Source: Tolypothrix bouteillei VB521301 | GTDB lineage: Bacteria > Cyanobacteriota > Cyanobacteriia > Cyanobacteriales > Nostocaceae | Reading direction: 5' to 3' | Assembly: GCF_000760695.4 (NCBI RefSeq) | Contig: NZ_JHEG04000001.1 | Span: forward strand, 6,330,204-6,394,203 | Length of the DNA: 64,000 nt | Shown here: positions 8,664 through 32,915 of the stretch, piece after piece | Numbering within the stretch: position 1 is the stretch's first letter | Layout: the number at the start of each line of letters is the position of its first letter | Notes under the pieces: generated by a model | The model's database searches: none | What the model was told of the DNA's origin: nothing | The model's input: the letters and a program-made list of their open reading frames with translations, nothing else | Position numbers and translations under genes: made by a program

Positions 8664-11600
8664 ATGATTGCTCTACCTGGTATCGCCATCCAAGACAAGA
8701 TATACGAAAGCTCTAATTCTCTAGTGTATCGAGGCATGAAAGACGATGGAGTAGCGATCGTCGTAAAAATGCTCAAGCAGGATTATCCCTCACCTCAAGA
8801 ACTAATCCGCTACAGACAGGAATATAGAATTACCAGTTCCCTCAACTTGGAAGGAGTTATCAAGGCATACAGCCAGCAAAACTATCAACGCACTCTGGTG
8901 ATGATTTTAGAAGATTTTGGGGGAGAGTCATTAGAGCAATGGATGCACAAGCGCCCAGATATTTTCTGCCCGATGCCTTTATCAACTTTTCTTGGTCTGG
9001 CGATCGCCCTCACCGATATTTTAGGCAAAATCCATGCTGCCAATGTCATTCATAAAGATATCAACCCTGGAAACATAGTCCTAAATCTGGATACTGGCGT
9101 TGTCAAAATTATTGATTTTGGGATTGCCACCCAATTTAACTGCACGAATCCGACTTTCAATAGCCACTATGTTATAGAAGGGACACTCGCCTACCTTTCT
9201 CCAGAGCAAACAGGGCGAATGAACCGTTTGCTCGATTACCGCACCGATTTATACTCCCTTGGTGTGACGTTCTACGAACTGCTAACCGGACATCTGCCGT
9301 TTCAAACAATGGATATGCTAGAACTAGTCCATTGTCATATTGCCAAACGACCCCCTTCACCTCATGAAATAAATACAAATATTCCCAAACCAGTGTCAGA
9401 TATTATTTTGAAACTGATGGCGAAAAATGCAGAAGATCGCTATCAGAGTGCCTGGGGAATAAAAGCAGATTTAGATATCTGTGTTCAACAATTAGAAGAA
9501 ATCGGTCAAATTTTTAGCCTTCATCTGGCGCGTCAAAATGTTTCGGGTCAGTTTCAAATTCCCCAAAAACTGTATGGGCGGAACAAGGAAGTTGCAATAT
9601 TACTGGCGGCTTTTGTTCGCGTAGCATGTCCGGAGGACAATCGTGTAGCGTGTCCAGAAAACAATCGCATTTCTTCTTTACCAAACAATTTAGAAACGAT
9701 TTCAGAAAGGGAAGCAACGGGCAATTCAAAATTCTCAGTTGAAATGATGCTTGTCTCTGGCTACGCCGGAATTGGTAAATCAGCATTAGTGCAGGAAATT
9801 TATAAACCGATTACCCAAAAACGTGGCTATTTTATCTCTGGGAAATTCGATCAATTCCAGCGCAATATACCTTACAGCGCGATCGCCGATGCTCTGCGAA
9901 AATTGGTGCAGCAAATACTGGGTGAACCAGAGAAACAAGTGCAACAATGGCGATCGTACCTGTTGACAGCATTGGGAAGTAACGGACAAATCATCATAGA
10001 TGCGATCCCAGAAGTTGAGCTAATTATTGGTAAACAACCACCTGTACCGTCCGTTGGAGCAACTGAAGCTCGAAACCGCTTTAACCGAGTCTTTGGGCAG
10101 TTTGTGCGGGTGTTTTGTACCAAGGAACATCCACTTGCGATCTTCTTAGATGATTTGCAGTGGATAGACTCAGCAACCCTGAAGTTAATTGAGTTGATGC
10201 TGCTTGATGAGCAAACCCAATATTTATTTTTGATTGGAGCCTATCGAGATAATGAAGTCAATGCAACGCATCCACTAGTATTAATGTTAGAGAGACTGCG
10301 AAAACAAGGAGCAGTGCTTAAAGAAATTATCTTAGCACCCTTAACGCTAGAGGCATTAAGCCAGTTGATTGCTGAAACATTATATCAGGATGCTGAAACT
10401 GTTCGTTCCTTAGCTGAGTTGGTACTACGTAAAACTGAGGGTAATCCTTTCTTTATCAATGAATTTTTGAGAATGCTGTATAGCGAAAATTTATTGACTT
10501 TTGATACACAACACTTAAGTTGGCAATGGGATATTGCTCAGATTCAAGCTCAAAATATCACTGATAATGTTGTGGAGTTGATGCTCCTCAAGCTGAAGAA
10601 ACTTCCAGAGGTGACACAGCAAATTCTCCGGTTAGCCGCTTGTGTTGGGGCTGAATTTGATTTGGAGACGTTATCGATTGTTTGTGAAAAAAGTCCTAAA
10701 GTGGTTTTCCAAGATTTACTAGCAGCCATACAAGTAGGACTAATTCAGCCCCTCTTAGAATTAGACGAGAACTTGCTAGTTCAAGATTATAAGTTTTTGC
10801 ACGATCGCGTGCAGCAAGCCGCCTATGCCTTAATTGATGGCTCGCAACAACAGCTTGTGCGCTTACAAATCGGTCATAATCTCCTAGAAAAAACCTTACC
10901 AGAGCGGCTAACAGACAAATTGTTTGAAATTGTCGATCATCTGAATTATGGAATTGAGCTTGTCACCGATCGAGTAGAACGAGATGAAATTGCCAAGTTA
11001 AATTTAATGGCAGCTTACAAAGCAAAGGGGGCGATCGCCTACGATGTAGCTGCAAAATATCTGGACTCAGGAAGATTATGGCTGGCAGCTTCTAGTTGGC
11101 AAACCAACTATGACCTAACTTTAGAGTTATATCTAGAAACAACAGAAGTCGCGTACTTATGTGGCGAATTTGAGCGAGTAGAAGACTGGGTAGCGATCGT
11201 TATAAAAGAAGCAAAAACTATTCTTGACAGCGTGAAAGTTTACGAAGTCAAAATTCAGACCGACATTGCACAGAGCCAGCTATTAAAAGCAATCAATACT
11301 GCACTGTCAGTTTTGCAGCAACTGGGGATCGATTTTCCCGAAACACCCAGTCAGGGAGATATTCAGCTTGAACTAGACGCGATTGCATCTATTTTGAGTG
11401 AGAAACCGATCGAGGACTTGATCCATTTGCCCCAGATGACAGAGCCGAGCCAGTTAGCAGCGATGCGAATTCTATCAAAGATAGCGATTTCTGCCTATAT
11501 TGCTGCCCCTAATTTGATGCCTTTACTGGTGTCTCAACAGGTCAAATTGTCCGTCCAGTACGGTAATGCGTTGGTATCTCCTTTTGCGTATGCCAACTTT

Positions 11601-14600
11601 GGATTAATTCTTTGTGCAATAGTCAAAGACATAGAGTCTGGCTACCAGTTTGGAAAGCTTGCTTTAGGGATGTTGTCACAGTCAAATTCTCATGGGCTTA
11701 AATCTAGGACTTTAAACATTGTAAATAACTTCATTATCCACTGGAAAGAACATGCAAGAGTCCTATTGAAGCCATTACTAGAAGGCTATCAAAGTGGGCT
11801 GGAAACTGGAGATTTAGAGTTTGCCGCTTATTGCGCTTATACTTACTGTTTTCAATCCTATGCCAATGGAAAAGAACTTGTAGAGGTTGAACGTGATATG
11901 GCAATCTATGGTAAAGCAATCCATCAAATCAAGCAAGAAACAGCACACACCTGGAATCGAATCTTTCGACAAGCTATCATCAACTTGATGGGATACTCAG
12001 TCAATCTAACTCGTCTCATTGGCACATCCTACAACGAGGAAAATGAACTGTCACAATATGAAGCAGCAAATGATGGAAGCAGTATATTTGCTGTATATTT
12101 CAACAAACTTTTTCTATGCTACCTATTTTATGAATATGCTCAAGCCGTTGAAAACGCAGTCCTAGCGGGAAGTTACTTGATCCGATTAACAGGCACAACC
12201 CTTGAGCCTTTGTACTATCTCTATGATTCTCTGGCAAGACTTGCAACTTATCTCGATAGCAGCGCTCAAGTGCAGGAGGAAATCCTGGAAATAGTTGTAA
12301 TTAGCCAGAAGAAAATGCAGCAATTGGCATATTATGCACCAATGAATTATTTGCATAAATATCAATTGGTGCAAGCGGAGATGGCACGAGTTTTGGGCCA
12401 GTTACTTGAGGCAGAAGAGTTCTACGAACAAGCAATTGTTGGTGCAAGAGACAACGAGTATCTGCAAGAAGAAGCATTAGCATACGAGTTAGCTGCGAAA
12501 TTTTACCTGTCTCGTGGTCGGGAAAAGTTTGGACAAACCTACATGAAAGAAGCTCATTACTGCTACCAACGCTGGGGAGCGACGGCGAAGGTGGAAGATT
12601 TAGAAAATCGTTATCCGCAACTATTTCCTCAATTGTCTGGTGGGGCTTACACGCCAATCGACACAACTTCTAGAAGCACTTCTAACACCTCACCTGTCGC
12701 TTTCGATTTAGTAACGGCGATCAAAGCATCTCAAGCAATTTCAAGTGAAATTGAACTCGATCGATTGCTTTGTTGCTTAATGAAGATATTAATCGAAAAT
12801 GCTGGCGCACAAACAGGTTTTCTAATTTTAGAAAACTCAGGAAAATGGGTGATTGAAGCCTCTGGTGAACTCATAGAGGGTGAGAATGTTTATGCTACAC
12901 AATTACTGCAATCTATCCCAACTGCAAATCATCTACCTGAATCAATTATTAATTATGTTATTCGCACTCATGAATGTGTCATTTTAAATGATGCTACCCG
13001 TGAAGGTAATTTTATTCATGAATCATATATTCAAGACAATCAAATTCCATCAATCTTATGTTTGCCTCTGCTGAATCAAGGTAAGCTAGTGGGCGTGTTG
13101 TATCTAGAAAATAAATTAGCGGTTGGAGCATTTACACCAGAGCGATCGCAAATTTTGCATCTACTCTCCACACAGGCAGCCATTGCGATCGAAAATGCCA
13201 AACTCTACTCACAGCTACGCACTAGCCAAAGCCAGATGGCTCAATTTCTAGAAGCAATTCCAGTGGGTGTTGCCGTCGTGGATACAGCAGGTCGCCCTTA
13301 CTTCGTCAACCAACGGGCAACTCAGCTAACAGGCAAAGGGGTTGTGTGTTCTGTGACAGCCGATCAACTCGCCCAAACGTATCAAATTTATCTGGCGGGA
13401 ACCGATCGACCTTATCCCACTGAAAAACTGCCAGCAGTCTTAGGTTTGCATGGCGAACGCAGCAGAATTGACGATATGGAGATTCAGCAAAACGGCAAAA
13501 CGATTCCAATTGAAGTGTGGGGAACACCAGTTTTTGACGAACAGGGCAATGTGATTTATGCGATCGTAGCCTTTCAAGATATCACAGAGCGCAAACAAAC
13601 AGAGCAATTGGTAGCTGATTACAACCGCACCTTAGAGCAACAAGTAATTGAACGAACTTTGCTTCTTTCTCAGGAGATTGAAGAGCGCCAACGAGTGGAA
13701 ATTGCTTTGCGACATAGTGAAGAGCAATACAGGCTGACAATGGACTTCACCCACATTGGCAGTTGGAGCTGGAATATCATTGAAAATACAACAGATTGGA
13801 ACGATAACCACGCTCGATTGCTGGGGTTAGTACCAGGTGAAGTTGAGAGTAGAACTCAAGCATGGCGCGATCGCGTTCATCCAGAAGACATTCATCGGGT
13901 TGAGCAAGTTGTTGAAGCATCTCTAGCAACCCATACCGATTGTGAAGTAGAATATCGAGTCATCCACCCAGATGGTAGTATTCACTGGTTGATTAGCAGA
14001 GGCCGAGGCATTTATAACTCAGCCGGACAACCTGTGCGAATGTTGGGTGTGATTCTTGATATTAGCGAACTGCACAACGCAGCACTGCGTGAACGCAAAC
14101 TTGCCGAAGCCACGTCAATTCTGGAAGAACGCAACCGTATGGCGCGAGAAATCCACGACACTCTAGCACAAGCTTTTACTGGCATTCTACTGAATGTTGG
14201 AGCAGCGACACAAGTGCTAACAGATGATTTGGAAGCGACACAGGCACATCTTGAAATGGTGGAGGATCTGGCACAAACTGGGCTTGCCGAAGCACGTCGT
14301 TCTGTAGCAGCACTCCGCCCCCATCTCTTGGAATATGGCAACTTGCATAGCGCCTTATATCGTCTGGTGGCTCAGATGAGAGCTGTTGCCGATACATCTC
14401 TTATTTACGAAATTAAAGGCACAGCCTATCCAATGCCTGCCGAGGTTGAGAATAATTTACTACGGATTGGACAGGAAGCATTAACCAATGCCGTAAAATA
14501 CGCTCATGCTTGCGAAGTTCGGGTTGAGTTAGTATATGAAAATACACAATGTATCTTGCGCGTTAAAGACAATGGACGGGGCTTCGGGGTTGGTAGTATT

Positions 14601-14726
14601 CCAAGAGTTGGCGGATTTGGATTGCTGGGAATGAGCGAGCGTGCAGAAAATATTGGAGCGCAACTGAGGATTGTGAGCCAACCTGGACAAGGAACAGAAA
14701 TTGTTGTCATTGTAAATCGAGAGTGA
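8664..14726 (+). CDS. Ser/Thr kinase - AAA ATPase - GAF/PAS - histidine kinase hybrid, 2020 aa
   Basis: Giant multi-domain signalling protein of a type common in Nostocales. Order seen: Ser/Thr kinase (about 8-275; Lys35, HKD 130-132 in place of HRD, DFG 151-153, SPEQ at 179-182); AAA/STAND-type ATPase with Walker A GYAGIGKS at 366-373 and a LDDLQW Walker B; a long helical TPR-like region (about 700-1330); GAF (about 1365-1512); two PAS domains (about 1524-1642 and 1689-1800); and a HisKA_3 segment MAREIHDTLAQ with phospho-acceptor His1831. A HATPase follows (N box near 1929, DNGRGFG near 1966, GGFGLLGM). The HisKA_3 type normally pairs with a NarL/LuxR response regulator, and a decayed tail of one follows directly. 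Residues ~317-334 are encoded by a dispersed repeat. A purine-rich AGAGAAG precedes the ATG. Confidence 0.92.
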   Translation: MIALPGIAIQDKIYESSNSLVYRGMKDDGVAIVVKMLKQDYPSPQELIRYRQEYRITSSLNLEGVIKAYSQQNYQRTLVMILEDFGGESLEQWMHKRPDIFCPMPLSTFLGLAIALTDILGKIHAANVIHKDINPGNIVLNLDTGVVKIIDFGIATQFNCTNPTFNSHYVIEGTLAYLSPEQTGRMNRLLDYRTDLYSLGVTFYELLTGHLPFQTMDMLELVHCHIAKRPPSPHEINTNIPKPVSDIILKLMAKNAEDRYQSAWGIKADLDICVQQLEEIGQIFSLHLARQNVSGQFQIPQKLYGRNKEVAILLAAFVRVACPEDNRVACPENNRISSLPNNLETISEREATGNSKFSVEMMLVSGYAGIGKSALVQEIYKPITQKRGYFISGKFDQFQRNIPYSAIADALRKLVQQILGEPEKQVQQWRSYLLTALGSNGQIIIDAIPEVELIIGKQPPVPSVGATEARNRFNRVFGQFVRVFCTKEHPLAIFLDDLQWIDSATLKLIELMLLDEQTQYLFLIGAYRDNEVNATHPLVLMLERLRKQGAVLKEIILAPLTLEALSQLIAETLYQDAETVRSLAELVLRKTEGNPFFINEFLRMLYSENLLTFDTQHLSWQWDIAQIQAQNITDNVVELMLLKLKKLPEVTQQILRLAACVGAEFDLETLSIVCEKSPKVVFQDLLAAIQVGLIQPLLELDENLLVQDYKFLHDRVQQAAYALIDGSQQQLVRLQIGHNLLEKTLPERLTDKLFEIVDHLNYGIELVTDRVERDEIAKLNLMAAYKAKGAIAYDVAAKYLDSGRLWLAASSWQTNYDLTLELYLETTEVAYLCGEFERVEDWVAIVIKEAKTILDSVKVYEVKIQTDIAQSQLLKAINTALSVLQQLGIDFPETPSQGDIQLELDAIASILSEKPIEDLIHLPQMTEPSQLAAMRILSKIAISAYIAAPNLMPLLVSQQVKLSVQYGNALVSPFAYANFGLILCAIVKDIESGYQFGKLALGMLSQSNSHGLKSRTLNIVNNFIIHWKEHARVLLKPLLEGYQSGLETGDLEFAAYCAYTYCFQSYANGKELVEVERDMAIYGKAIHQIKQETAHTWNRIFRQAIINLMGYSVNLTRLIGTSYNEENELSQYEAANDGSSIFAVYFNKLFLCYLFYEYAQAVENAVLAGSYLIRLTGTTLEPLYYLYDSLARLATYLDSSAQVQEEILEIVVISQKKMQQLAYYAPMNYLHKYQLVQAEMARVLGQLLEAEEFYEQAIVGARDNEYLQEEALAYELAAKFYLSRGREKFGQTYMKEAHYCYQRWGATAKVEDLENRYPQLFPQLSGGAYTPIDTTSRSTSNTSPVAFDLVTAIKASQAISSEIELDRLLCCLMKILIENAGAQTGFLILENSGKWVIEASGELIEGENVYATQLLQSIPTANHLPESIINYVIRTHECVILNDATREGNFIHESYIQDNQIPSILCLPLLNQGKLVGVLYLENKLAVGAFTPERSQILHLLSTQAAIAIENAKLYSQLRTSQSQMAQFLEAIPVGVAVVDTAGRPYFVNQRATQLTGKGVVCSVTADQLAQTYQIYLAGTDRPYPTEKLPAVLGLHGERSRIDDMEIQQNGKTIPIEVWGTPVFDEQGNVIYAIVAFQDITERKQTEQLVADYNRTLEQQVIERTLLLSQEIEERQRVEIALRHSEEQYRLTMDFTHIGSWSWNIIENTTDWNDNHARLLGLVPGEVESRTQAWRDRVHPEDIHRVEQVVEASLATHTDCEVEYRVIHPDGSIHWLISRGRGIYNSAGQPVRMLGVILDISELHNAALRERKLAEATSILEERNRMAREIHDTLAQAFTGILLNVGAATQVLTDDLEATQAHLEMVEDLAQTGLAEARRSVAALRPHLLEYGNLHSALYRLVAQMRAVADTSLIYEIKGTAYPMPAEVENNLLRIGQEALTNAVKYAHACEVRVELVYENTQCILRVKDNGRGFGVGSIPRVGGFGLLGMSERAENIGAQLRIVSQPGQGTEIVVIVNRE

Positions 14727-22360: not shown

Positions 22361-23458
22361 TTAAAGGTTTTTCCGTTCAAGTTGTTTGAGTGCCCAATTA
22401 GCTTTCTCTCGGGCTTCTGAAAGAGCAATGCGATGGCACCATGAAAGTGATGGTACAAACACCGGAAGAATCGATCGATTGTTTTGCAAAAATTGTTTTA
22501 ACGCTCCAATGGCTCTAGTATCTCCTAGCTTACCAAGCGCTTCTGCTGCTTGATTGGCAACAGCATATCGACTGTCTCCCGAAAGCCGATGCTCTAATGC
22601 TCTCATGAGAGGTTCCACCGCTCTCAAATCTCCGAGTTCTCCAAGAATCATAGCTGCTCGCAAGCGAATCACAATGTTTTTTTCTTCATCCTCCACCTCA
22701 GATAAAGGAATATGGAGAGCATAAAGCATTGGTTCTAGAGTTCTTGGATCTGGCAACCGCATTAAAGTATTAAAGACCTTGCTGTTCAGCAAGGAAATGG
22801 GGTGACGTAATGCTTCTAAGGCTTCTTCTAGTAACTCAAAGCAATACTTACTTTCACTCTGGGTTACTTGTTTTTTATCTTGTTCAAGACATGCTATGTA
22901 ATAAGAAGCATACTCGGAGTTTTCGTCCATATAGTAAGCACCCGTTTCATAGCATTCCGCTACAATTAACATGAGAGTTGTTAGACTTGGGTATTTAATT
23001 TGAGGTAGGCTTCCACCTCCTAAATGGCAATGAATGACAGGTGAGATTTTATTATCTGTGGAATCTCCAAAAACAATTAAGTATTCCAAATCATCATACG
23101 CAAAAATCGGAAACCAAGGTTTATGACAATTCTCAGCATTAGGTGATGTGTATTTATATCTAAATTCTTCAATTTCTTGAGACTCTTCTATTGCTTGCTC
23201 TAAAGATAGAAAATCAAAATAAGGAATAAATCTAGTATCCAAGATTAAATTATTACTTCTTGAAATACTCAAAAAATCTATGCCATTATGCCACTGGTAA
23301 AGTTCAAAAACTTCTTGTGGTAAACGAAAGGGAAGGTTTTTCACTTGAGATTCAATTTCTTCAAGCGTTAATCCTGGTTTAAGAAGTGATGCTACCTCCG
23401 GTCTGTGTTGTTGCAGAGAATGAAAGATTCTGTCTAAAGCTTTGGTAAGAACTGACAT
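22361..23458 (-). CDS. SMI1/KNR4 (SUKH) domain plus HEAT-repeat protein, 365 aa
   Basis: N-terminal ~190 residues look like a SMI1/KNR4 (SUKH) domain: L-P-x-E-V-F-E-L-Y-Q-W-H-N-G, then F-x-P-Y-F-D-F-L-S-L-E-x-A, W-F-P-I-F-A-Y-D-D, L-I-V-F-G-D. The C-terminal half has HEAT/PBS-lyase-like repeats: I-V-I-R-L-R-A-A-M-I-L-G-E-L-G-D-L-R-A-V-E-P-L and A-A-E-A-L-G-K-L-G-D-T-R-A-I. SUKH proteins often act as immunity proteins to secreted toxins, but in cyanobacteria many stand alone; no toxin is nearby. Cytoplasmic, no signal. Confidence 0.8.
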   Translation of the reverse strand: MSVLTKALDRIFHSLQQHRPEVASLLKPGLTLEEIESQVKNLPFRLPQEVFELYQWHNGIDFLSISRSNNLILDTRFIPYFDFLSLEQAIEESQEIEEFRYKYTSPNAENCHKPWFPIFAYDDLEYLIVFGDSTDNKISPVIHCHLGGGSLPQIKYPSLTTLMLIVAECYETGAYYMDENSEYASYYIACLEQDKKQVTQSESKYCFELLEEALEALRHPISLLNSKVFNTLMRLPDPRTLEPMLYALHIPLSEVEDEEKNIVIRLRAAMILGELGDLRAVEPLMRALEHRLSGDSRYAVANQAAEALGKLGDTRAIGALKQFLQNNRSILPVFVPSLSWCHRIALSEAREKANWALKQLERKNL

Positions 23459-24322: not shown

Positions 24323-25822
24323 ATGCAAGTTAGTTACCAGTACAAATTGCGCCCTAGGGAAAATCAATCAAAAGTTATGGATTCGTGGTTGGATATGCAG
24401 CGTAGTTTGTTTAACTGGTTTCTGGCTGACCGTATTGACGGCTATTATCAAACCTTTGTTATGGGTGAGTATTGCGATATTAGAACAAGAACTGAGCAAT
24501 GCCCATTAACTTGTTCGTTGAGCAAGAACTCAAATTTGCACAATCCTTGGAAAAACCCAGACAAAAACGGAGTAGTCAAAAAGCGTTCTGCAAGTTTAAT
24601 GCAAGATGCTTATTTGGCAGAAATGAAGCAAGCTAGACCTTGGTATAAGACAATCCACTCAAACGTGTTGCAAATGCTGGTAAAGCGTCTTGAGTGTTCT
24701 ATGGAAGGCTTCTTTAAACATGGTCGTGGGTTTCCTTCATTTAAGAACAGGTCTAACTTTCGCTCTTTCCAGTACAAGCCAGGTGACGTTAAGCTCGACG
24801 GGAATAAAATATATCTGCCATTAATAGGGTGGATGCGTTTTTATAATTCTCGTCCTATCCCACAAGGATTCCAGATCCGTACCGTAACACTGCGTAAAAA
24901 AGCAGATGGTTGGTACACGAGTATATTAATTAGAGATGATTCAGTTCCTGATTATCCAACCCCAAAAGAAGTTAATACTATTGTGGGAGTGGATATGGGA
25001 TTGACTAAGCTTGTTCATTGCTCAGATGGTTCTGAGTTTGACAATCCTCGTCCTAGTACGTCCAAGAAAGGTAAACGCACTCTAAAAATCAGGCAGCGAC
25101 GTTTATCTAGGAAAAAGAAAGGTAGCGCAAACCGCAAGAAAGAGGCGCAAAAACTGGCTCGACTCCACAAAAAACGCGCTGATAAACGTAGTGCCTACCA
25201 ATGGCTAGTTGCCAGCAAGATAGTTAGAAAAGCTGACGCTATTAGCGTGGAAGATCTCAACATCAAAGGGATGAAAGCAAGGTGTAAGCCTAAGCCTGAT
25301 GATGTTAAACAAGGTCGATTTCTCAAGAATGGTCAATCCGCTAAACGCGGTTTGAATCGTTCTATTTCAGATGCTTCATGGGGAACTTTGATAGAAAAAA
25401 TTCAGTACGCGGCTGCGAAGTCGGGAAAAAGTTTTTTCAAGGTTGATCCAAAAAACACGAGCCGTACTTGTTCCAAGTGTGGTGTCGTTGATGCCTTGTC
25501 TCGCTTTGGAGAAAAGTTTGTTTGCACATCGTGCGGACATGAAGCGCACGCAGACAAACAAGCGGCAGTTAACATTAAAACCCGTGCTGTACAACAAAAC
25601 GGGTTAACAATCAAGAAACTTAAAAAGGTACGCAGGGACTCTGCGGAACCCAAACAATTAATATTGTTTGAAACGCCCAACCCTGAATTAACAGGGATTA
25701 AAAGGAGACACCGTGCCAGCAATGGCGAGCGCGGTGTGCCTGGGAACCCGCCAACCTCAGTACAACTGAGTCTGTGGGATAACGCGGAAATGGCATATTC
25801 GCGTGAATCCCACCCCTTCTAG
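24323..25822 (+). CDS. tnpB: TnpB, RNA-guided RuvC-like nuclease, 499 aa
   Basis: The RuvC triad is intact: Asp224 in GVDMGLTKL, Glu310 in ISVEDLNIKG and Asp411 in HADKQAAVNI. A zinc ribbon has Cys383, 386, 401 and 404. The N-terminus (YQYKLRP-x4-Q) and the G-x-P-x-F-K-x-R-x-x-F-R-S-F-Q-Y segment are normal for TnpB. It is about 100 residues longer than a typical 400-residue TnpB; the extra residues after ~430 lie over the right end, where the guide (omega/re) RNA of such elements is encoded. Known role of the family: nick or cut DNA matching the RNA guide at a TAM, helping the transposon to persist. Start ATG 24323 follows AGAGGATG. Confidence 0.93.
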   Translation: MQVSYQYKLRPRENQSKVMDSWLDMQRSLFNWFLADRIDGYYQTFVMGEYCDIRTRTEQCPLTCSLSKNSNLHNPWKNPDKNGVVKKRSASLMQDAYLAEMKQARPWYKTIHSNVLQMLVKRLECSMEGFFKHGRGFPSFKNRSNFRSFQYKPGDVKLDGNKIYLPLIGWMRFYNSRPIPQGFQIRTVTLRKKADGWYTSILIRDDSVPDYPTPKEVNTIVGVDMGLTKLVHCSDGSEFDNPRPSTSKKGKRTLKIRQRRLSRKKKGSANRKKEAQKLARLHKKRADKRSAYQWLVASKIVRKADAISVEDLNIKGMKARCKPKPDDVKQGRFLKNGQSAKRGLNRSISDASWGTLIEKIQYAAAKSGKSFFKVDPKNTSRTCSKCGVVDALSRFGEKFVCTSCGHEAHADKQAAVNIKTRAVQQNGLTIKKLKKVRRDSAEPKQLILFETPNPELTGIKRRHRASNGERGVPGNPPTSVQLSLWDNAEMAYSRESHPF

Positions 25823-25829
25823 GGGTGGG
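25809..25829 (+). repeat. Right-end hairpin of the TnpB element
   Basis: CCCACCCCT and AGGGGTGGG form a 9-bp stem with a TCT loop; the tnpB stop codon lies inside it. In IS605-type elements the right-end hairpin is also the 3' part of the guide RNA scaffold, so the guide would begin a few bases downstream, near 25837. Confidence 0.7.
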
Positions 25830-25838
25830 TGCGTCAAC

Positions 25839-26207
25839 ACGAGCTAAAAAAGTAACTACATTAGAAGCTGTTCCTCCAGGACTTGCACCCACAAGAATCA
25901 CTCCCAATGCCAACATAGGTGGTAATTTCAAAACTGTTGCAGCTAACCATCCTACAATTGGCATGATAGTAAACTGTAGCAAGACCCCCAAGATTAATGC
26001 CCTACCAGCTTTTCGCAAGCTTTGTAATTGCTGTGTAGTGATTGTTAAACCCATTCCTAACATCACCACTCCCAGCGCTATTGAAATGTTACCACTACCA
26101 CTTGCAGCAATTTTTGGAAAAAAATAACCCCAAGTAGCACCAATTAATACCCAAGCAACAAATAAATCTTGGCTGAACTTGATGAGACGATTGATTTTGT
26201 GAGACAT
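25839..26207 (-). pseudogene. Bile acid:sodium symporter (BASS) family, 3' truncated
   Basis: The intact start and first ~123 residues show BASS family helices and motifs: I-A-L-G-V-V-M-L-G-M-G-L-T, then L-G-V-I-L-V-G-A-S-P-G-G-T-A-S-N-V-V-T-F-L-A-R. At this point the frame runs into the right end of the TnpB element and the remaining ~6 helices are missing; full-length proteins are about 300 residues. It cannot be functional. It diverges from the methyltransferase-PIG-L-BshC fusion gene at 26616. Confidence 0.85.
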
Positions 26208-26615
26208 TTGCTGCAGCTTATTTTATGTAAAAATAAAATACTATATATCTATAGATTTACTGGATTTTTGATTTTCCAAGAAGCTTAGCTTCCCAATTTC
26301 TTACAGAAGTCAGAGATCTGAAGATATTTTACTTCAACAATTCAGGGATTTGACATTTTTTTGTCACATTCATTAACCAGACTAAAAATAACAAGGACTG
26401 AGAAGTCCATAAAAATCTCGCCCCAATTCTTGCTTGGGGATTTCCAAAGCTAATTTCCTTTATCCTCACCCTCTCTCAAAGTAGAGACCCCTTCTCTCTG
26501 GGGGAGAAGAACGGGGATAAAGGCAAAATTAGCACGATTTGTGACGCCAATTTAGAGTTAAGAGTTCAGTTTCTGGATTTAAGAACTTTACGAATTCTCA
26601 AAGAGCGTACTTTCT
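26208..26615. other. Divergent intergenic region upstream of the fusion gene
   Basis: About 400 bases. AT-rich at first, then a block with CCTCACCCTCTCTC and CCCTTCTCTCTGGGGGAGAAG (imperfect palindrome) near 26465-26515, of the dispersed cyanobacterial type. It should hold the promoters of the symporter and the fusion gene; I cannot point to defined boxes. Confidence 0.4.
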
Positions 26616-29600
26616 ATGAAAGAAGTCATTAAGATGACCCAAAACACTGTATCCAACGTCAATCTAAACCCACGCGATCGCTATGATTTTTGGGCGGAAT
26701 CTTACGACAAAAGCACCGCCAGTTTTGGGTGGACAGCACCGCAATTTCTGCTCGAAGCCACAATACATCATGCACCCCCTGCGGGATTTTTGCAAGTGCT
26801 TGATGTCGGTGTTGGAACTGGACAAGCAAGTCTTCCTTATCTTGAAATAGGGGCTTGTGTCACTGGATTAGACGTATCACCGCAAATGCTGCAACAAGCT
26901 CAATCCAAATACCCCCAGTTTCACGCCCTGATCGAACACGACTTCAATCACCCACTCGTTGAAGCCGGTTTGCAAGCTCAGAGTTTTGATGTCGTCCTAA
27001 GCTGCGGAGCACTTCACTTTGCAAAGGATTTAAGTCGAACCCTCGCAGAGTTAAGATGGGTGCTTGCAGCTGGTGGAGTGCTAGCATTTACCTACATTCC
27101 TCCCCAAGGGCGAAAATTTAGCACAGCCGCATGTCTCTACGATCCAAACACTGTCGAGCACCTACTGCAGCAGCTCGATCTAACCGTTCTAGACCATCAA
27201 TCATTTGTAGCTTACTATGAGGGCGGCGATTTCCAAGACCCCGTGGTCTATCAGCGAGTTGTAGCACGTTGTTCTCAACAAGGAATATCGCTTCCAGCCA
27301 TTCTTCGGGATATAGACCGAACCGCCTGTGTCGATCGCTCTCGTTTGTTAGACCTTGTCAGTCAACCTTTAATGACAGGAACGCTCGCCACAGATTGGAC
27401 ATATGAATATACCAAAGTCCGTAATGAAAATCAAAATTTAGTTGAGACATTGCGATCTCAACTTAAAACGGGACAAGTCAAGCCAAGACATCTACCATTA
27501 CCGAAGACCACAGGGGAGTCAGCGCGTCAGGGAAAGCCAGAATGTGATGTATTGGTACTTATGCCACATCCTGATGATGAATCAATCTATGCTGGTGGGA
27601 CAATCGCAGCCCTAACAGAAGCAGGAAAGCGAGTGAGATTGGTTGTCGCAACAGATGGTGCAGCAGGACGTGGAGGCGAACACTCAAGAAGAGTTGAGCA
27701 AAGAGCATTAGAACTGCGCCGTGCAGCTGAATGTCTCAATATCGAGCAAGTAGAATCCCTGGGATTGGTTGATTTTGGCAAATATCGAGATGTTTCTCGG
27801 ATGCAACCGACAACAGCCGCCGATGCACTGCAAAGATGGGAACTCGATCCAACGCTAGCGCTTCTCGTGCGTACAATCCGCAAGCACCGCCCGCAAATAC
27901 TCTTAACACTGCATCCAGAGGTCGATCCAAACTATTCGCTGCACGGACACCATCTTGGTTTGGGAGTTGCTGCTCTAATAGCATTCCACCTAGCAGCCGA
28001 TCCGGGCTTTATCGTTCCAGAAGCGACTCACTTGCTTCCCTGGGCGATCGAACAGCACTATACAATGGTTCCCACCCATCATCAGGGTTCTAATATCTTG
28101 CGAGTTGAAATCGATCGCCAACAGAAACTGAAAGCATTATTTGCTTACGAGTCACAGCACTACTCAACCCAACGCTTGATAACAGACTTGAAAACAGACA
28201 CTCCTAGTGCAAGCTTCGAGACTCTCCAACTCTTACAAGCGCGATGTCATGGAACTTTAATTGCAGCCACTGTGTTGCGATCGCATCCAAAGCTTCACAA
28301 ACTGGCAATTAACCGAGACTGGGTGTCTGCATACAAAAATCTGCGTCAGCGTCTTTATCCAAGAGAAGCATTAACCAAACTATTACAACAACAAGCCGAA
28401 TGCTGGGGGTCATCAGAAGCAGCCTTTGCCAACATCAAAAAACTCTCTCATCCCCATACAGTTGCAGTCGTGACAGGACAGCAAGTGGGTGTTTTTGGCG
28501 GACCTGCTTACACCCTTTATAAAGCACTCGGAGCCATTCAACTAGCCCAGCACTTGACAGTGCAAGGAATTCCTGCAGTTCCCATCTTTTGGATGGCAAG
28601 TTACGATAGTGACCTTGATGAGGTGCAGCACGTTCAGCTATTAGCTCATCAAACCGAACCAAAAATACTCAGCCTGGAATTACCCGTTACCCAACGTTTA
28701 GTTGGTTCTACCCCTTTAGGAGAAGGCATTCATGCTCTATTAAAACAGATAGAACAAACACTCGCTCAACGCCCTCACAGTCAAGAAGTCGTTGCAGCCC
28801 TACAAACCATTTATCAACCAGGAACCACCTTTGCAGAAGCCTTTGCTCGTTGGTTGAGCTTGCTGACAAAGGAATTTGGGCTGATTGTCCTCGATCCATC
28901 AACTCGTGAATTTGCCGAACTTGCTCGTAATGCGATCGCAAAAGAACTCTTTGGTGATGAACGTTCTCAAATACCTCTGACTCGCGCCCGCCAAGCATTA
29001 GCCGAGCGGGGGCTTTCCGAAACTATTCCCACAGATCGCGATGTGCTGCAAGTCTTTTTTGTAGATGCAGATGGAACTCGCAGACGCATGCTTCCAGCCA
29101 AGGAAGGCTTTGCATTGCAAAACAGCAAGATTCATCTCACTGATGATGCAGTCAGAACTTTGTTAGAGCAACAACCCGAACGATTTACACCAAGCGCCTT
29201 ATTACGTCCCATTTGTCAAGATACAGTCTTACCCACCATTGCTTGCGTTGCAGGTCCCACCGAACAGCAATATTTTGCTCAACTTAGGGAAGTTTATACC
29301 TGGGCAAACATCCCCATGCCTCAAATTGTAACCCGTCCTTCATTTACGGTTTTAGATAGCACCATTTCCAAACAACTCGTTGATGCAGGAGGAACAAATT
29401 TATTGTTGTCCAGTGATGACCCTAGCAACCGTTTGGGAAGAGTCGGTCTTCCCGAAGAACTTCGGATTGCTTTTGACAAGTTAGAGACTTTGCAACAGCA
29501 GTGTTTTGCATTACGAACAGCAGCTGTAGTGGGTCAATCGATCGCTCAAGAAGCGATCGCCCTCAAACATTCTATCGAGCAATGGCTATCCACAACTGAG

Positions 29601-29984
29601 CCCATTCTGAAATCCTGGGGAGCAAAACGTCCTTTAGAGGCTTTTACACGTGCAAAAGTAGAGCTTCCTCCTCTTATAGCAACTGTTTGCTCGGATTTAC
29701 AACGTTCCGGGAGCCGCAGCAACCCTCCTCCCACACGAAACGTAGTCGCCCTCGCTCAAACTTTATCCCGTCTGGAATCGACACTGATTCGCGAAGGAAG
29801 GAGACAAAATGCGTCTGGTCTTGCTGCTTTTGCCTGCATCAGCCCCAAAGGTAAACCTCAAGAACGCCATCTAAGTGTTGCGGAACTGATTGCAACACAT
29901 GGTTTTGCGATCGTATCCCATCTTTTGCCCATCTCGTGTCCCGATCTTATTGAAACAAGAGTCATAACTGTCCACCATTCATAA
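26616..29984 (+). CDS. Methyltransferase - PIG-L deacetylase - BshC fusion, 1122 aa
   Basis: Three enzymes in one chain. Residues ~20-290: class I SAM methyltransferase (motif I VLDVGVGTGQ at 61-70, then L-D-V-S-P-Q-M-L). Residues ~310-560: PIG-L/LmbE zinc deacetylase with MPHPDDE (316-322) and HGHH (443-446), related to BshB of bacillithiol synthesis. Residues ~580-1122: BshC family, with VVTGQQVGVFGGPAYTLYKA at 618-637 and A-V-P-I-F-W-M-A-S-Y-D-S-D. BshC adds cysteine to glucosaminyl-malate in Firmicutes; N-methyl-bacillithiol is known from green sulfur bacteria and made by a SAM methyltransferase. So the fusion could make an N-methylated bacillithiol-like thiol or a related cysteine-bearing sugar product. 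The enzyme logic is inference. The start could also be ATG 26634 (MTQNT). Directly behind lie a glycosyltransferase-like start and an MFS relic. Confidence 0.88.
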   Translation: MKEVIKMTQNTVSNVNLNPRDRYDFWAESYDKSTASFGWTAPQFLLEATIHHAPPAGFLQVLDVGVGTGQASLPYLEIGACVTGLDVSPQMLQQAQSKYPQFHALIEHDFNHPLVEAGLQAQSFDVVLSCGALHFAKDLSRTLAELRWVLAAGGVLAFTYIPPQGRKFSTAACLYDPNTVEHLLQQLDLTVLDHQSFVAYYEGGDFQDPVVYQRVVARCSQQGISLPAILRDIDRTACVDRSRLLDLVSQPLMTGTLATDWTYEYTKVRNENQNLVETLRSQLKTGQVKPRHLPLPKTTGESARQGKPECDVLVLMPHPDDESIYAGGTIAALTEAGKRVRLVVATDGAAGRGGEHSRRVEQRALELRRAAECLNIEQVESLGLVDFGKYRDVSRMQPTTAADALQRWELDPTLALLVRTIRKHRPQILLTLHPEVDPNYSLHGHHLGLGVAALIAFHLAADPGFIVPEATHLLPWAIEQHYTMVPTHHQGSNILRVEIDRQQKLKALFAYESQHYSTQRLITDLKTDTPSASFETLQLLQARCHGTLIAATVLRSHPKLHKLAINRDWVSAYKNLRQRLYPREALTKLLQQQAECWGSSEAAFANIKKLSHPHTVAVVTGQQVGVFGGPAYTLYKALGAIQLAQHLTVQGIPAVPIFWMASYDSDLDEVQHVQLLAHQTEPKILSLELPVTQRLVGSTPLGEGIHALLKQIEQTLAQRPHSQEVVAALQTIYQPGTTFAEAFARWLSLLTKEFGLIVLDPSTREFAELARNAIAKELFGDERSQIPLTRARQALAERGLSETIPTDRDVLQVFFVDADGTRRRMLPAKEGFALQNSKIHLTDDAVRTLLEQQPERFTPSALLRPICQDTVLPTIACVAGPTEQQYFAQLREVYTWANIPMPQIVTRPSFTVLDSTISKQLVDAGGTNLLLSSDDPSNRLGRVGLPEELRIAFDKLETLQQQCFALRTAAVVGQSIAQEAIALKHSIEQWLSTTEPILKSWGAKRPLEAFTRAKVELPPLIATVCSDLQRSGSRSNPPPTRNVVALAQTLSRLESTLIREGRRQNASGLAAFACISPKGKPQERHLSVAELIATHGFAIVSHLLPISCPDLIETRVITVHHS

Positions 29985-29992
29985 TTCAGCAT

Positions 29993-30097
29993 ATGAAGTT
30001 GTCGTTTGCTCGCGTTCCAAACATTGCTCCATATTTCAATAGCTCTGCGTATCACATTGCCTCAGAGATTGCATCAATGAACTACCCCGCCGTATAG
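29993..30097 (+). pseudogene. N-terminal stub, possibly a glycosyltransferase, cut by a transposon end
   Basis: ATG 29993 lies 8 bases after the fusion gene stop. The frame encodes M-K-L-S-F-A-R-V-P-N-I-A-P-Y-F-N-S-S-A-Y-H-I-A-S-E-I-A-S-M and then enters the TnpB right end (hairpin from 30085). The strand-loop-helix pattern resembles the start of GT-B (GT4) glycosyltransferases, the family of BshA, but 29 residues cannot prove it. The downstream body is missing. Confidence 0.35.
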
Positions 30098-30435
30098 ACG
30101 GACGGGGTTTCTAATTCCCCGTCTGGCTCATGGTTGAGTTTTTGACGCTTCAACTGTCCAAGTTGCTTCATCGAGCCAGTATGCTTACGCTTTTTGGTCG
30201 AATCAGTAGAGCTTAGACATCCACAGTCTACGAGGCTAGTCCCTAACCCCGGTTGCCGATTCGTCGCAACGTTGTACATGACCATCACAGAACCTCTATC
30301 ACGTGGTATTTCAAATCCACAATCTGAGCATACATGGTGACGATTTGACAATTCTGCCCAGTGTTTATGGATTTTCCCACAATTAGGACAACGTTGTGAT
30401 GGTTTGATTTGTTTGGTAGGAAGTACAAGCATCAA
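30082..30435 (-). pseudogene. TnpB C-terminal remnant with right end
   Basis: Minus-strand frame with a zinc ribbon R-C-P-N-C-G and C-S-D-C-G followed by R-D-R-G-S-V-M-V-M-Y-N-V-A, the RuvC-III region of TnpB (Asp retained). The first two RuvC motifs are lost. A hairpin at 30085-30107 (CCCCG-CGT...ACG-CGGGG) marks the right end of this element. It sits between the glycosyltransferase-like stub and the MFS relic. Confidence 0.75.
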
Positions 30436-31217: not shown

Positions 31218-32915
31218 TTACTTAACAATGCTTGAAACAGTTGCTATTTCAGGCTCCCCAAAATGTGGAGAAATAAAATCCTTTGCGTATATCCGGGGAT
31301 TCTCTTGAGCGATTTGGACATAAGATTGGCGTACCTGAGTGTTTACCGCAACAGTTTTCATATCGTACAATTGCGTAGCCAACTTGGGATAAACCCCAAT
31401 GCCAATAATCAACACCAGAAAGCAAGCGGCGATAAACATTTCACGAGGTTTGGCATCGCTGTATGCTGACTCAGCAGGTAACAGACAGTCTGTTCCAAAG
31501 CAAGCAGTTCCTTCATCCTCCTGATTCTCGAACCCTGCATTGTTAACATCACAGGTGAGTTTTGCACCAGTTCCATAAAATACCTGCTTCAACATGGAAA
31601 GCAAATAGATTGGCGTCAATATAACTCCCACTGCGGCTAAGAATACCATCACAGTGCAGAAAGTCGGACTGTAAATATCGCTAGTGGTGACACCCACAAA
31701 GACTTGAAGTTCGCTCACAAAACCGCTCATTCCCGGTAAAGCTAGGGAAGCCATCGCACCGGCTGTAAATAGAGCAAAAACTTTGGGCATGGCTTGAGCA
31801 ATTCCACCCATACTTTCCATCGCCATCGTGTGAGTGCGATCGTAGGTAATGCCAGCCAGGAAGAATAACACTGCAGCAATCAAACCGTGAGAAAGCATTT
31901 GGAGCATTGCACCACTCACTCCCACATCGGTGAAGGAAGCAATACCCAACAGCACAAATCCCATGTGAGAAACTGACGAATAAGCGAGGCGACGCTTCAT
32001 ATTATTTTGGGCAAAAGAGTTCAAAGCGCCATAAATAATATTGATAACACCCAATGTTGCCAGCACGGGAGCAAAGTAAATGTGAGCATCTGTCAGCAAC
32101 TCTAAATTGAGACGAATCAAACCGTATCCGCCCATTTTGAGCAAGACACCAGCCAAAATCATCGATACAGGAGCAGAAGCTTCACCGTGAGCATCTGGTA
32201 ACCAGGTGTGCAAGGGGAAAATTGCCAGCTTGACACCAAAAGCAATCAGCAATCCCGCGTAAAGCAAAAGTTCTAAAGCAAGAGGATAATTTTTTGCACC
32301 AAGTTCGACTATGTCGAAGGTCAAATTATCTCCATAAAGAGCCATTGCCAGACCAGCTACTAAAATAAAAATTGAAGCAGCTGCGGTATAAAGCAAGAAT
32401 TTAGTAGCGGCATAGCGACGTTTTTGACCGCCCCAAATAGAGACAAGCAGGTAGACGGGAACCAGTTCCAGTTCCCACATGATGAAGAACAGCAGTAAAT
32501 CTTGGGCAACAAACACCCCAATCTGAGCGGCATACAGCACCAGCATCAGAAAATAAAACAAGCGAGGCTTCAAATTAACTTGCCATGCGGCAAACATTGA
32601 GAGCGTCGTTACCAACCCTGCTAGCAGTACGAGGGGAACAGATATTCCATCGACTGAAACAGCCCAACTCAAACCTATCTGAGGCAACCAGGCATATTTC
32701 TCCACGAGTTGAAAAGTCGCACTGCTTGCATCGTAATGCTTCCAAAAGGTGTAGCACATCAGAACAAAATCCGCGATACCCACACCGAGGGCATACCATC
32801 GCACTCGTTTGCCGTCTTTATCAGGTAGCAATGGAATAAGCGTAGAAGCAACGAGTGGCAACAGGACAATCGCGGTCAGCCAAGGAAATCCATCCATCAT
32901 CATGGCGTTGAGCAA
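31218..32915 (-). CDS. ndhD: NAD(P)H-quinone oxidoreductase chain 4 (NdhD), 565 aa
   Basis: Antiporter-like membrane subunit of the photosynthetic NDH-1 complex in the thylakoid/cytoplasmic membrane; part of cyclic electron flow and respiration, thought to carry protons. About 14 transmembrane helices. Conserved pieces: [12 protein letters not shown] (key Glu), [17 protein letters not shown] (key Lys), [11 protein letters not shown] and [12 protein letters not shown]. Length fits NdhD1 (about 530-565). Several starts are possible (M1, M5-M7); family members begin close to the FPWLTAI segment. The gene is single here, with a terminator behind it. Confidence 0.95.

What the first reader, a model, noticed from the sequence alone, without database searches (positions are those of the whole stretch)
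26616..29984. Three-enzyme fusion: SAM methyltransferase, BshB-like deacetylase, BshC
BshB (PIG-L) and BshC are the last two steps of bacillithiol synthesis, and cyanobacteria are thought to use glutathione. Here both are fused, with a methyltransferase in front, all with intact motifs (SAM motif I, HPDDE/HGHH, and the BshC VTGQQVG region). N-methyl-bacillithiol, made by a SAM methyltransferase, is known from green sulfur bacteria, so the fusion would fit one-chain production of a methylated bacillithiol-like thiol or a cysteine-bearing natural product.
Basis: partly seen in the sequence, partly recalled or inferred. Interest (0 to 1): 0.88.

Follow-up and report, generated by a model that had tools for sequence, protein, structure and literature searches.

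The report
Fused bacillithiol pathway in cyanobacteria
A rare gene in some cyanobacteria joins three enzymes of bacillithiol-type thiol synthesis into one protein and, in related strains, sits in an operon with the missing first enzyme and a transporter; in this strain that partner gene is destroyed.

Summary
The fusion is real: one 1,122-aa ORF (26616-29984, +) with a SAM methyltransferase, a PIG-L zinc deacetylase and a BshC cysteine ligase, motifs present.

The main new result is the neighbourhood. In 8 of 9 other genomes of its family with the gene, a BshA-type glycosyltransferase gene follows it, and in 7 of 9 an MFS transporter comes next; in the rest the contigs end. In 7 of 84 family members, in two parts of the tree outside the cyanobacterial group, a GT4/BshA part is fused to the same chain. 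So the operon carries a complete bacillithiol-type pathway plus methylation and a transporter, possibly an exporter.

The hosts keep a glutathione enzyme (9 of 10), with no bacillithiol reductase above cut-off and no bacilliredoxin (0 of 10 each), so a specialised thiol is likelier than a redox buffer. In the window's strain bshA is reduced to about its first 28 codons and the MFS gene to its last third around a TnpB relic, with no other copy found: the pathway is probably dead there.

The parts
26351..26366 (+). Conserved upstream element (tandem TGTCAT-like repeat, 11-bp period; here TGACATTTTTTTGTCA), 283 bp before the 26634 ATG
   Evidence: Aligned upstream regions of 8 operons share it while the rest of the upstream DNA diverges; 107-283 bp before the start used for each ORF; pattern rare elsewhere in 9 genomes (the pattern was designed on these loci)
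26616..29984 (+). Fusion gene: SAM methyltransferase - PIG-L (BshB-like) deacetylase - BshC ligase, 1122 aa (1116 aa from the ATG at 26634)
26661..27278 (+). Methyltransferase domain, about residues 16-221, motif I DVGVGTG at residues 63-69
27312..27338 (+). Linker motif IDRTACVDR (residues 233-241), low confidence in the model (mean pLDDT 65 for residues 231-240)
   Evidence: CVDR in 73 of 84 aligned members, also in members whose methyltransferase motif is lost
27537..28253 (+). PIG-L deacetylase domain, about residues 308-546, HPDDE 318-322 and SLHGHH 441-446
28311..29972 (+). BshC domain, about residues 566-1119 (Rossmann core plus C-terminal helical part)
29993..30097 (+). Remnant of bshA: about 28 N-terminal codons of the GT4 gene, running into a stop inside the inserted DNA
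   Evidence: tblastn with the intact gene of L104 matches its residues 1-42 only; DNA match ends at 30076; translation ends in a stop after 34 residues
30076..30435 (-). IS605/TnpB-type relic (ORF 30082-30435 with the C-terminal TnpB/Cas12f1-like piece) standing where most of bshA and most of the MFS gene are in relatives
   Evidence: a 74% identical copy elsewhere in the same genome
30406..30798 (+). Remnant of the MFS transporter gene: last third (residues 298-421 of 427 of the L104 protein)
   Evidence: tblastn 86% identity; blastn 92%; Pfam MFS_1

Best explanation
The fusion is the core of a compact operon for a bacillithiol-type metabolite: fusion (methyltransferase + BshB-like deacetylase + BshC ligase), then bshA, then an MFS transporter. 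Inferred order of work: BshA joins GlcNAc from UDP-GlcNAc to L-malate; the PIG-L domain removes the acetyl group; the BshC domain adds cysteine to the freed amine; the methyltransferase domain methylates the product or an intermediate at an atom not yet known; the MFS protein moves the product out of the cell. Shown here: domain content, catalytic motifs, conserved gene order, BshA-type sequence of the partner, and fusion of a GT4/BshA part to the same chain elsewhere. Inferred: substrates, methylation site and export. In the window's strain a TnpB-type relic stands in place of most of bshA and of the MFS gene, so the fusion is an intact orphan of a broken operon, lost recently enough that it shows no sign of decay.
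For: Domains and motifs; BshC and PIG-L folds. Gene order fusion-bshA in 8 of 9 other genomes and fusion-bshA-MFS in 7 of 9 (contigs end in the rest; in L103 two transposase genes lie between fusion and bshA). Five GT4s score 244-277 bits with the BshA model (cut-off 273.7; 1 of 5 above). The nearest solved relatives of the L101 GT4 are at 138-173 bits, among them the entry named BshA (5d00, 169.7), while the entry named as the mycothiol enzyme reaches 35.7. A GT4 part at the C-terminus in 7 of 84 members, in two separate parts of the tree; 4 of the 7 were scanned and match the BshA model at 181-222 bits. Hosts keep the cyanobacterial GshA in 9 of 10; Bdr/YpdA above cut-off in 0 of 10; Brx in 0 of 10. 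Window strain: truncated bshA and MFS, no second bshA at E <= 1e-30, no BshA-model hit above cut-off among 75 matches. Fusion dN/dS about 0.2 against the sister, 0.17-0.23 by part; relative-rate tests against L104, P0002 and P0003 show no acceleration (9 of 9 not significant).
Against: No chemistry is known. Four of five scanned GT4s fall a little below the BshA cut-off, as do the four scanned fused ones, and the PIG-L part is far below the BshB1/BshB2 cut-offs (51.8 and 39.5 against 182.5 and 195.25), so the scaffold could be a relative of bacillithiol. Direction of MFS transport is not readable from sequence: in the 25 NCBIfam rows shown for each of two MFS proteins, efflux and uptake families are mixed and none is above its cut-off. 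Absence of Brx is weak evidence: of three control genomes with BshC only B. subtilis has that family. The BshC part of the window's clade has Ser665 in place of a mostly conserved His. In many other members the methyltransferase motif is lost, so methylation is not essential to the core reaction.
Confidence: 0.6

Rival explanations
1. The operon makes N-methyl-bacillithiol for use inside the cell as a second redox thiol beside glutathione, as in green sulfur bacteria.
For: BshA, BshB-like and BshC parts plus a methyltransferase; N-Me-BSH is an established thiol made by a SAM methyltransferase (PMC6282198, passages; PMC12719100, abstract, passages and sections 2.1 and 4.1).
Against: The methyltransferase is not NmbA-like in sequence (9RI2: E 0.057; rank 58, 22 bits as profile). 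Bdr/YpdA above cut-off in 0 of 10 and Brx in 0 of 10 (the Brx control is weak), while GshA is kept in 9 of 10. A conserved MFS gene in the operon fits transport better than storage.
Confidence: 0.15
2. A specialised metabolite built on a different acceptor: BshA-like GT4, deacetylase and ligase make a cysteinyl-glucosamine glycoside that is not malate-based, with the methyltransferase capping a carboxyl, amine or thiol.
For: 4 of 5 GT4 scores lie below the BshA equivalog cut-off; the PIG-L part is not a BshB equivalog; the methyltransferase's NCBIfam matches include BioC and trans-aconitate methyltransferase, carboxyl methylators (recalled), at low scores; MFS in the operon.
Against: The GT4 is far closer to the solved BshA group than to the mycothiol enzyme; the BshC part passes the BshC cut-off.
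Confidence: 0.2
3. In the window's strain the fusion still works, taking GlcNAc-malate or a similar substrate from another glycosyltransferase or from outside the cell.
For: Intact ORF, dN/dS 0.17-0.23 in every part, no acceleration in relative-rate tests against L104, P0002 and P0003.
Against: No GT4 of this type elsewhere in the genome at E <= 1e-30 and no BshA-model match above cut-off; the transporter is broken as well. A recent loss explains the low dN/dS equally well.
Confidence: 0.1

Closest known systems
Bacillithiol biosynthesis BshA-BshB-BshC (Bacillus subtilis type)
   Different: Deacetylase and BshC are one chain with a methyltransferase in front; bshA and an MFS gene follow in relatives; the hosts keep cyanobacterial GshA in 9 of 10 and show no Bdr above cut-off and no Brx (0 of 10 each).
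N-methyl-bacillithiol and NmbA (Chlorobaculum tepidum CT1040; PDB 9RI2)
   Same: A SAM methyltransferase tied to the three Bsh functions.
   Different: The methyltransferase domain shows no close sequence relation to NmbA. The 2025 survey of the pathway required hits of similar length to the single enzymes (PMC12719100 section 4.1), so fused proteins would probably have been left out.
Mycothiol biosynthesis (MshA, MshB, MshC)
   Same: Similar logic: glycosyltransferase, PIG-L deacetylase, cysteine ligase (recalled).
   Different: The ligase is BshC and not MshC, a different enzyme type (recalled); the GT4 matches the BshA group far better than the mycothiol enzyme.
LnmX and other natural-product PIG-L proteins
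   Same: PIG-L fold and zinc motif; LnmX is the best single-sequence PDB match of the PIG-L part.
   Different: Here the PIG-L part is fused to BshC and, in relatives, beside bshA.

Membership tests
BshC (bacillithiol cysteine ligase) | Score above the NCBIfam TIGR03998 equivalog cut-off | tested here: met
   343.8 bits against 265.8
BshC (bacillithiol cysteine ligase) | Fold of B. subtilis BshC over the whole length | tested here: met
BshC (bacillithiol cysteine ligase) | Conserved core residues shared with B. subtilis BshC | tested here: inconclusive
   GQQ, GP-YT--K, FW-A, D-D-LDE, RP-Q and AGP-E patterns shared (GQQ in 76 of 84), but residue 665 is Ser where B. subtilis and 67 of 75 members have His; which residues are catalytic was not available
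BshC (bacillithiol cysteine ligase) | Cysteine ligation to GlcN-malate | not testable with these tools
   needs enzyme assay
BshB (GlcNAc-malate deacetylase) | PIG-L zinc motif HPDD and histidine cluster | tested here: met
   HPDD and HxHH in 84 of 84
BshB (GlcNAc-malate deacetylase) | Score above BshB1 or BshB2 equivalog cut-offs | tested here: not met
   51.8 against 182.5 and 39.5 against 195.25; so PIG-L deacetylase with a BshB-like role by context, not a BshB equivalog
BshB (GlcNAc-malate deacetylase) | Closest fold is BshB rather than MshB or other PIG-L | tested here: inconclusive
BshA (operon partner, in relatives) | Score above TIGR03999 equivalog cut-off 273.7 | tested here: inconclusive
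   276.8 in L101; 270.1, 255.6, 251.4, 244.1 in L100, L102, L104, L103: 1 of 5 scanned above
BshA (operon partner, in relatives) | Closer to BshA than to the mycothiol enzyme MshA by sequence | tested here: met
   for the L101 protein: 5d00, named BshA, 169.7 bits; 7qsg, named D-inositol 3-phosphate glycosyltransferase, 35.7 bits. The other top entries (3mbo, 2jjm, 6d9t, 6n1x) are only named glycosyltransferases there; that they are BshA is recalled
NmbA (N-methyl-bacillithiol synthase) | Full-length sequence similarity to NmbA | tested here: not met
   9ri2: 40 residues, E 0.057; profile of 11 domains: 22.2 bits over positions 54-159, rank 58
NmbA (N-methyl-bacillithiol synthase) | NmbA-type cap domain fold | tested here: inconclusive
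NmbA (N-methyl-bacillithiol synthase) | N-methylation of the cysteinyl amine of BSH | not testable with these tools
   needs enzyme assay
Bacillithiol-based redox buffering | Bdr (YpdA) above the TIGR04018 cut-off | tested here: not met
   0 of 10 genomes above cut-off (weaker matches in 10 of 10); above cut-off in 3 of 14 controls
Bacillithiol-based redox buffering | Bacilliredoxin BrxA/B (PF06491) | tested here: not met
   0 of 10 genomes; control found only in B. subtilis, though three control genomes have BshC, so this row weighs little

The most novel reading that the evidence does not exclude
A compact pathway, in some bacteria apparently a single four-part protein (methyltransferase-BshB-BshC-BshA), makes a methylated bacillithiol-type thiol that is exported, for example as an extracellular metal ligand, redox agent or signal. 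Its methylation evolved independently of NmbA, and it occurs patchily in a few glutathione-using cyanobacteria, where bacillithiol chemistry serves secretion instead of cytosolic redox balance. The IDRTACVDR loop would be part of substrate handling between the domains.
Probability: 0.35. Interest if true: 0.82.

Novelty: new variant of a known kind. Interest (0 to 1): 0.66.

Why it matters
Cyanobacteria are described as glutathione users (PMC6282198, passage), and a 2025 survey of the bacillithiol pathway looked for proteins of single-enzyme length (PMC12719100 section 4.1). This family shows a complete bacillithiol-type gene set packed as a multi-enzyme chain in a few filamentous cyanobacteria, next to a transporter and without a Bdr reductase above cut-off. 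If confirmed, bacillithiol chemistry would have a secreted or specialised role and a second, unrelated methylation route. It also offers a covalently linked deacetylase-ligase on which the BshC reaction, which I recall as poorly understood, could be studied.

Tried and rejected
N-Me-BSH by an NmbA homologue: not supported at sequence level; 9RI2 is also not among the 50 rows shown for the methyltransferase model, which by itself excludes nothing. Plasmid location: a tblastn of the fusion against 72,556 plasmid records at E <= 1e-30 gave one match, a Deinococcus bshC matching residues 583-1104 only. Relatives of the methyltransferase plus linker alone: 10 hits, the best three looking like N-terminal pieces of fusions, two of them labelled partial cyanobacterial sequences. 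I found no known domain for the linker motif in the scans of the whole protein. Malate-binding residues of BshA could not be read: the paper is not held and another does not list them in the passages seen. Whether the upstream repeat is a regulator box stays open; its likeness to an E. coli Pho box is recalled and untested. Paper searches with bacillithiol or BshC and cyanobacteria, fusion, cluster, exporter, thiol, Calothrix or Rivularia showed no listing that describes this fusion or operon; most lists were cut at 12-20 rows and only open papers are held.

Dropped rows: 84 rows were aligned (the window protein, P0001-P0057, P0070-P0095; P0001 is the window's own database copy). P0058 (BshC-aldolase), P0059 and P0096-P0109 (mainly polyketide synthases) and P0060-P0069 were left out. 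The rule for methyltransferase motif I gave 55 of 84 and includes P0043, which looks degenerate; P0030, P0031, P0079 and P0086 lack the region. GQQ is missing in 8 of 84, all 521-645 aa long without that part. The tree used 75 rows (P0001 and rows with 35% or more gaps removed), is one FastTree run rooted at midpoint; most degenerate-methyltransferase members form one clade, but P0042 and P0083 fall elsewhere. A relative-rate test against P0004 was significant in 3 of 3, P0004 being the faster. In one search the pattern was designed on the same loci, so its 7 operon hits are by construction; it also gave 3 other hits in nine genomes, and the reversed control pattern gave 3. A first count of residue 665 included one misaligned short row; one search replaces it (67 of 75).
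Full report

The family. Two protein searches gave 59 and 96 hits. I aligned 84 sequences, counting the window protein and its own database copy: HPDD and the histidine cluster are kept in 84 of 84, GQQ in 76 of 84 (the other 8 are short and lack that part), a linker motif with CVDR in 73 of 84, and methyltransferase motif I by a simple rule in 55 of 84; 49 of 84 have all three catalytic signatures. Source names include Scytonema, Calothrix, Rivularia, Scytonematopsis, a Leptolyngbyaceae MAG, and, for members with a lost methyltransferase motif, Nannocystaceae and Myxococcota MAGs; many have no name. In a tree of 75 sequences the members with cyanobacterial names group together; most of those with a degenerate methyltransferase form one clade.

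The missing first enzyme. Seven of the 84 carry about 340-390 extra C-terminal residues with GT4 domains, in two separate parts of the tree (P0037-P0041 and P0070; P0047). Four of the seven were scanned, and that part matches the BshA model at 181-222 bits, below its cut-off of 273.7: order methyltransferase-BshB-BshC-BshA. In the cyanobacterial genomes examined BshA is a separate gene. Of 217 genomes of the window's family (the names point to Nostocaceae) 10 have BshC, including the window's own; in a sample of 386 genomes of the phylum only the own genome has it. In the nine others, bshA follows the fusion in eight and an MFS gene follows bshA in seven; the rest are contig ends (L091, G543). 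In L103 two transposase genes of IS4 and Tn5 type lie between fusion and bshA. The GT4 of L101 matches the solved enzyme named BshA (5d00) at 169.7 bits and the named mycothiol glycosyltransferase (7qsg) at 35.7; five scanned GT4s score 244-277 bits with the BshA model, one above the cut-off.

The window's own copy of the operon is broken. Downstream of the fusion only about the first 28 codons of bshA remain (29993 to about 30076); then comes a TnpB-type relic (to 30435) with a 74% identical copy elsewhere in the genome; then the last third of the MFS gene. About 2 kb present in the sister locus L104 is missing. No other copy of this bshA was found at E <= 1e-30, and none of 75 matches reaches the BshA cut-off. 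The fusion shows dN/dS of about 0.2 against L104 (0.17-0.23 by part), and its protein does not evolve faster than that of L104, P0002 or P0003. A recent loss is the simplest reading.

What it makes. BshA, a GlcNAc-malate deacetylase and BshC are, by established knowledge of the bacillithiol pathway, the three steps from UDP-GlcNAc, L-malate and cysteine to bacillithiol. The added methyltransferase is not close to NmbA: single-sequence E 0.057 over 40 residues, profile rank 58 with 22 bits. So the site of methylation is open; N-, O- and S-methylation are all possible. A survey of N-Me-BSH required hits of similar length with over 80% coverage (PMC12719100, section 4.1 read), which would probably leave these fusions out; its section 2.1 and the passages seen name no cyanobacteria as carriers, but its supplements were not seen.

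What it is for. The ten genomes keep the cyanobacterial glutamate-cysteine ligase in 9 (the tenth is 84% complete). YpdA/Bdr is above cut-off in 0 of 10, with weaker matches in all. BrxA/B is found in 0 of 10, but among the three control genomes with BshC only B. subtilis has it, so that absence weighs little. With a transporter gene in the operon this favours a specialised, perhaps exported thiol over a redox buffer. Export is an inference: the MFS proteins match efflux and uptake models alike, none of the rows shown above cut-off.

Further features. A tandem repeat close to TGTCAT-N5-TGTCAT lies 107-283 bp upstream of the start used in all eight operons examined, in otherwise diverged DNA. 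The pattern designed on them, with one mismatch allowed, hits 7 operons and only three other places in nine genomes, as many as a reversed control pattern (3); the diverged forms of the window and L104 are not matched by it. The linker motif IDRTACVDR lies in a low-confidence stretch of the model (residues 231-240, mean pLDDT 65) and is kept even where the methyltransferase motif is lost; its role is unknown. Position 665 of the BshC core is Ser in the window's clade, Ser, Ala or Thr in four others, and His in 67 of 75 members and in B. subtilis.

Verdict. I found no description of the fusion or operon in the papers searched (listings, with passages of a few), although NCBI already labels such proteins BshC.

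Noticed in passing
26351-26366 and the same position upstream of the L099-L105 operons: Short conserved tandem repeat (TGTCAT-like, 11-bp period) upstream of the fusion in all eight operons examined; rare elsewhere in nine genomes. Regulator unknown.
   Followed up: partly
27312-27338 (residues 233-241 of the fusion): Linker motif IDRTACVDR conserved in this family, kept even when the methyltransferase motif is lost; low confidence in the model.
   Followed up: partly
24323-26207: A TnpB/IS605 OrfB gene (24323-25822) overlaps a short sodium-bile-acid-symporter-like ORF (25698-26207, minus strand) matching only part of the family profile: possibly a second TnpB-associated gene disruption just upstream of the fusion.
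   Followed up: no
22361-23458: SUKH-1 domain joined to PBS-lyase HEAT repeats on the minus strand.
   Followed up: no
8664-14726: 2,020-aa signalling protein with Ser/Thr kinase, AAA, GAF, PAS and histidine kinase domains.
   Followed up: no
P0058 (789 aa): BshC fused to an HpcH/HpaI-type aldolase, a different BshC fusion from the one studied here.
   Followed up: partly
L099:15604-17286 and window 31218-32915: Homologous genes (NADH dehydrogenase-like by eye) lie near the operon in both the window's strain and G537, on different sides of it.
   Followed up: no
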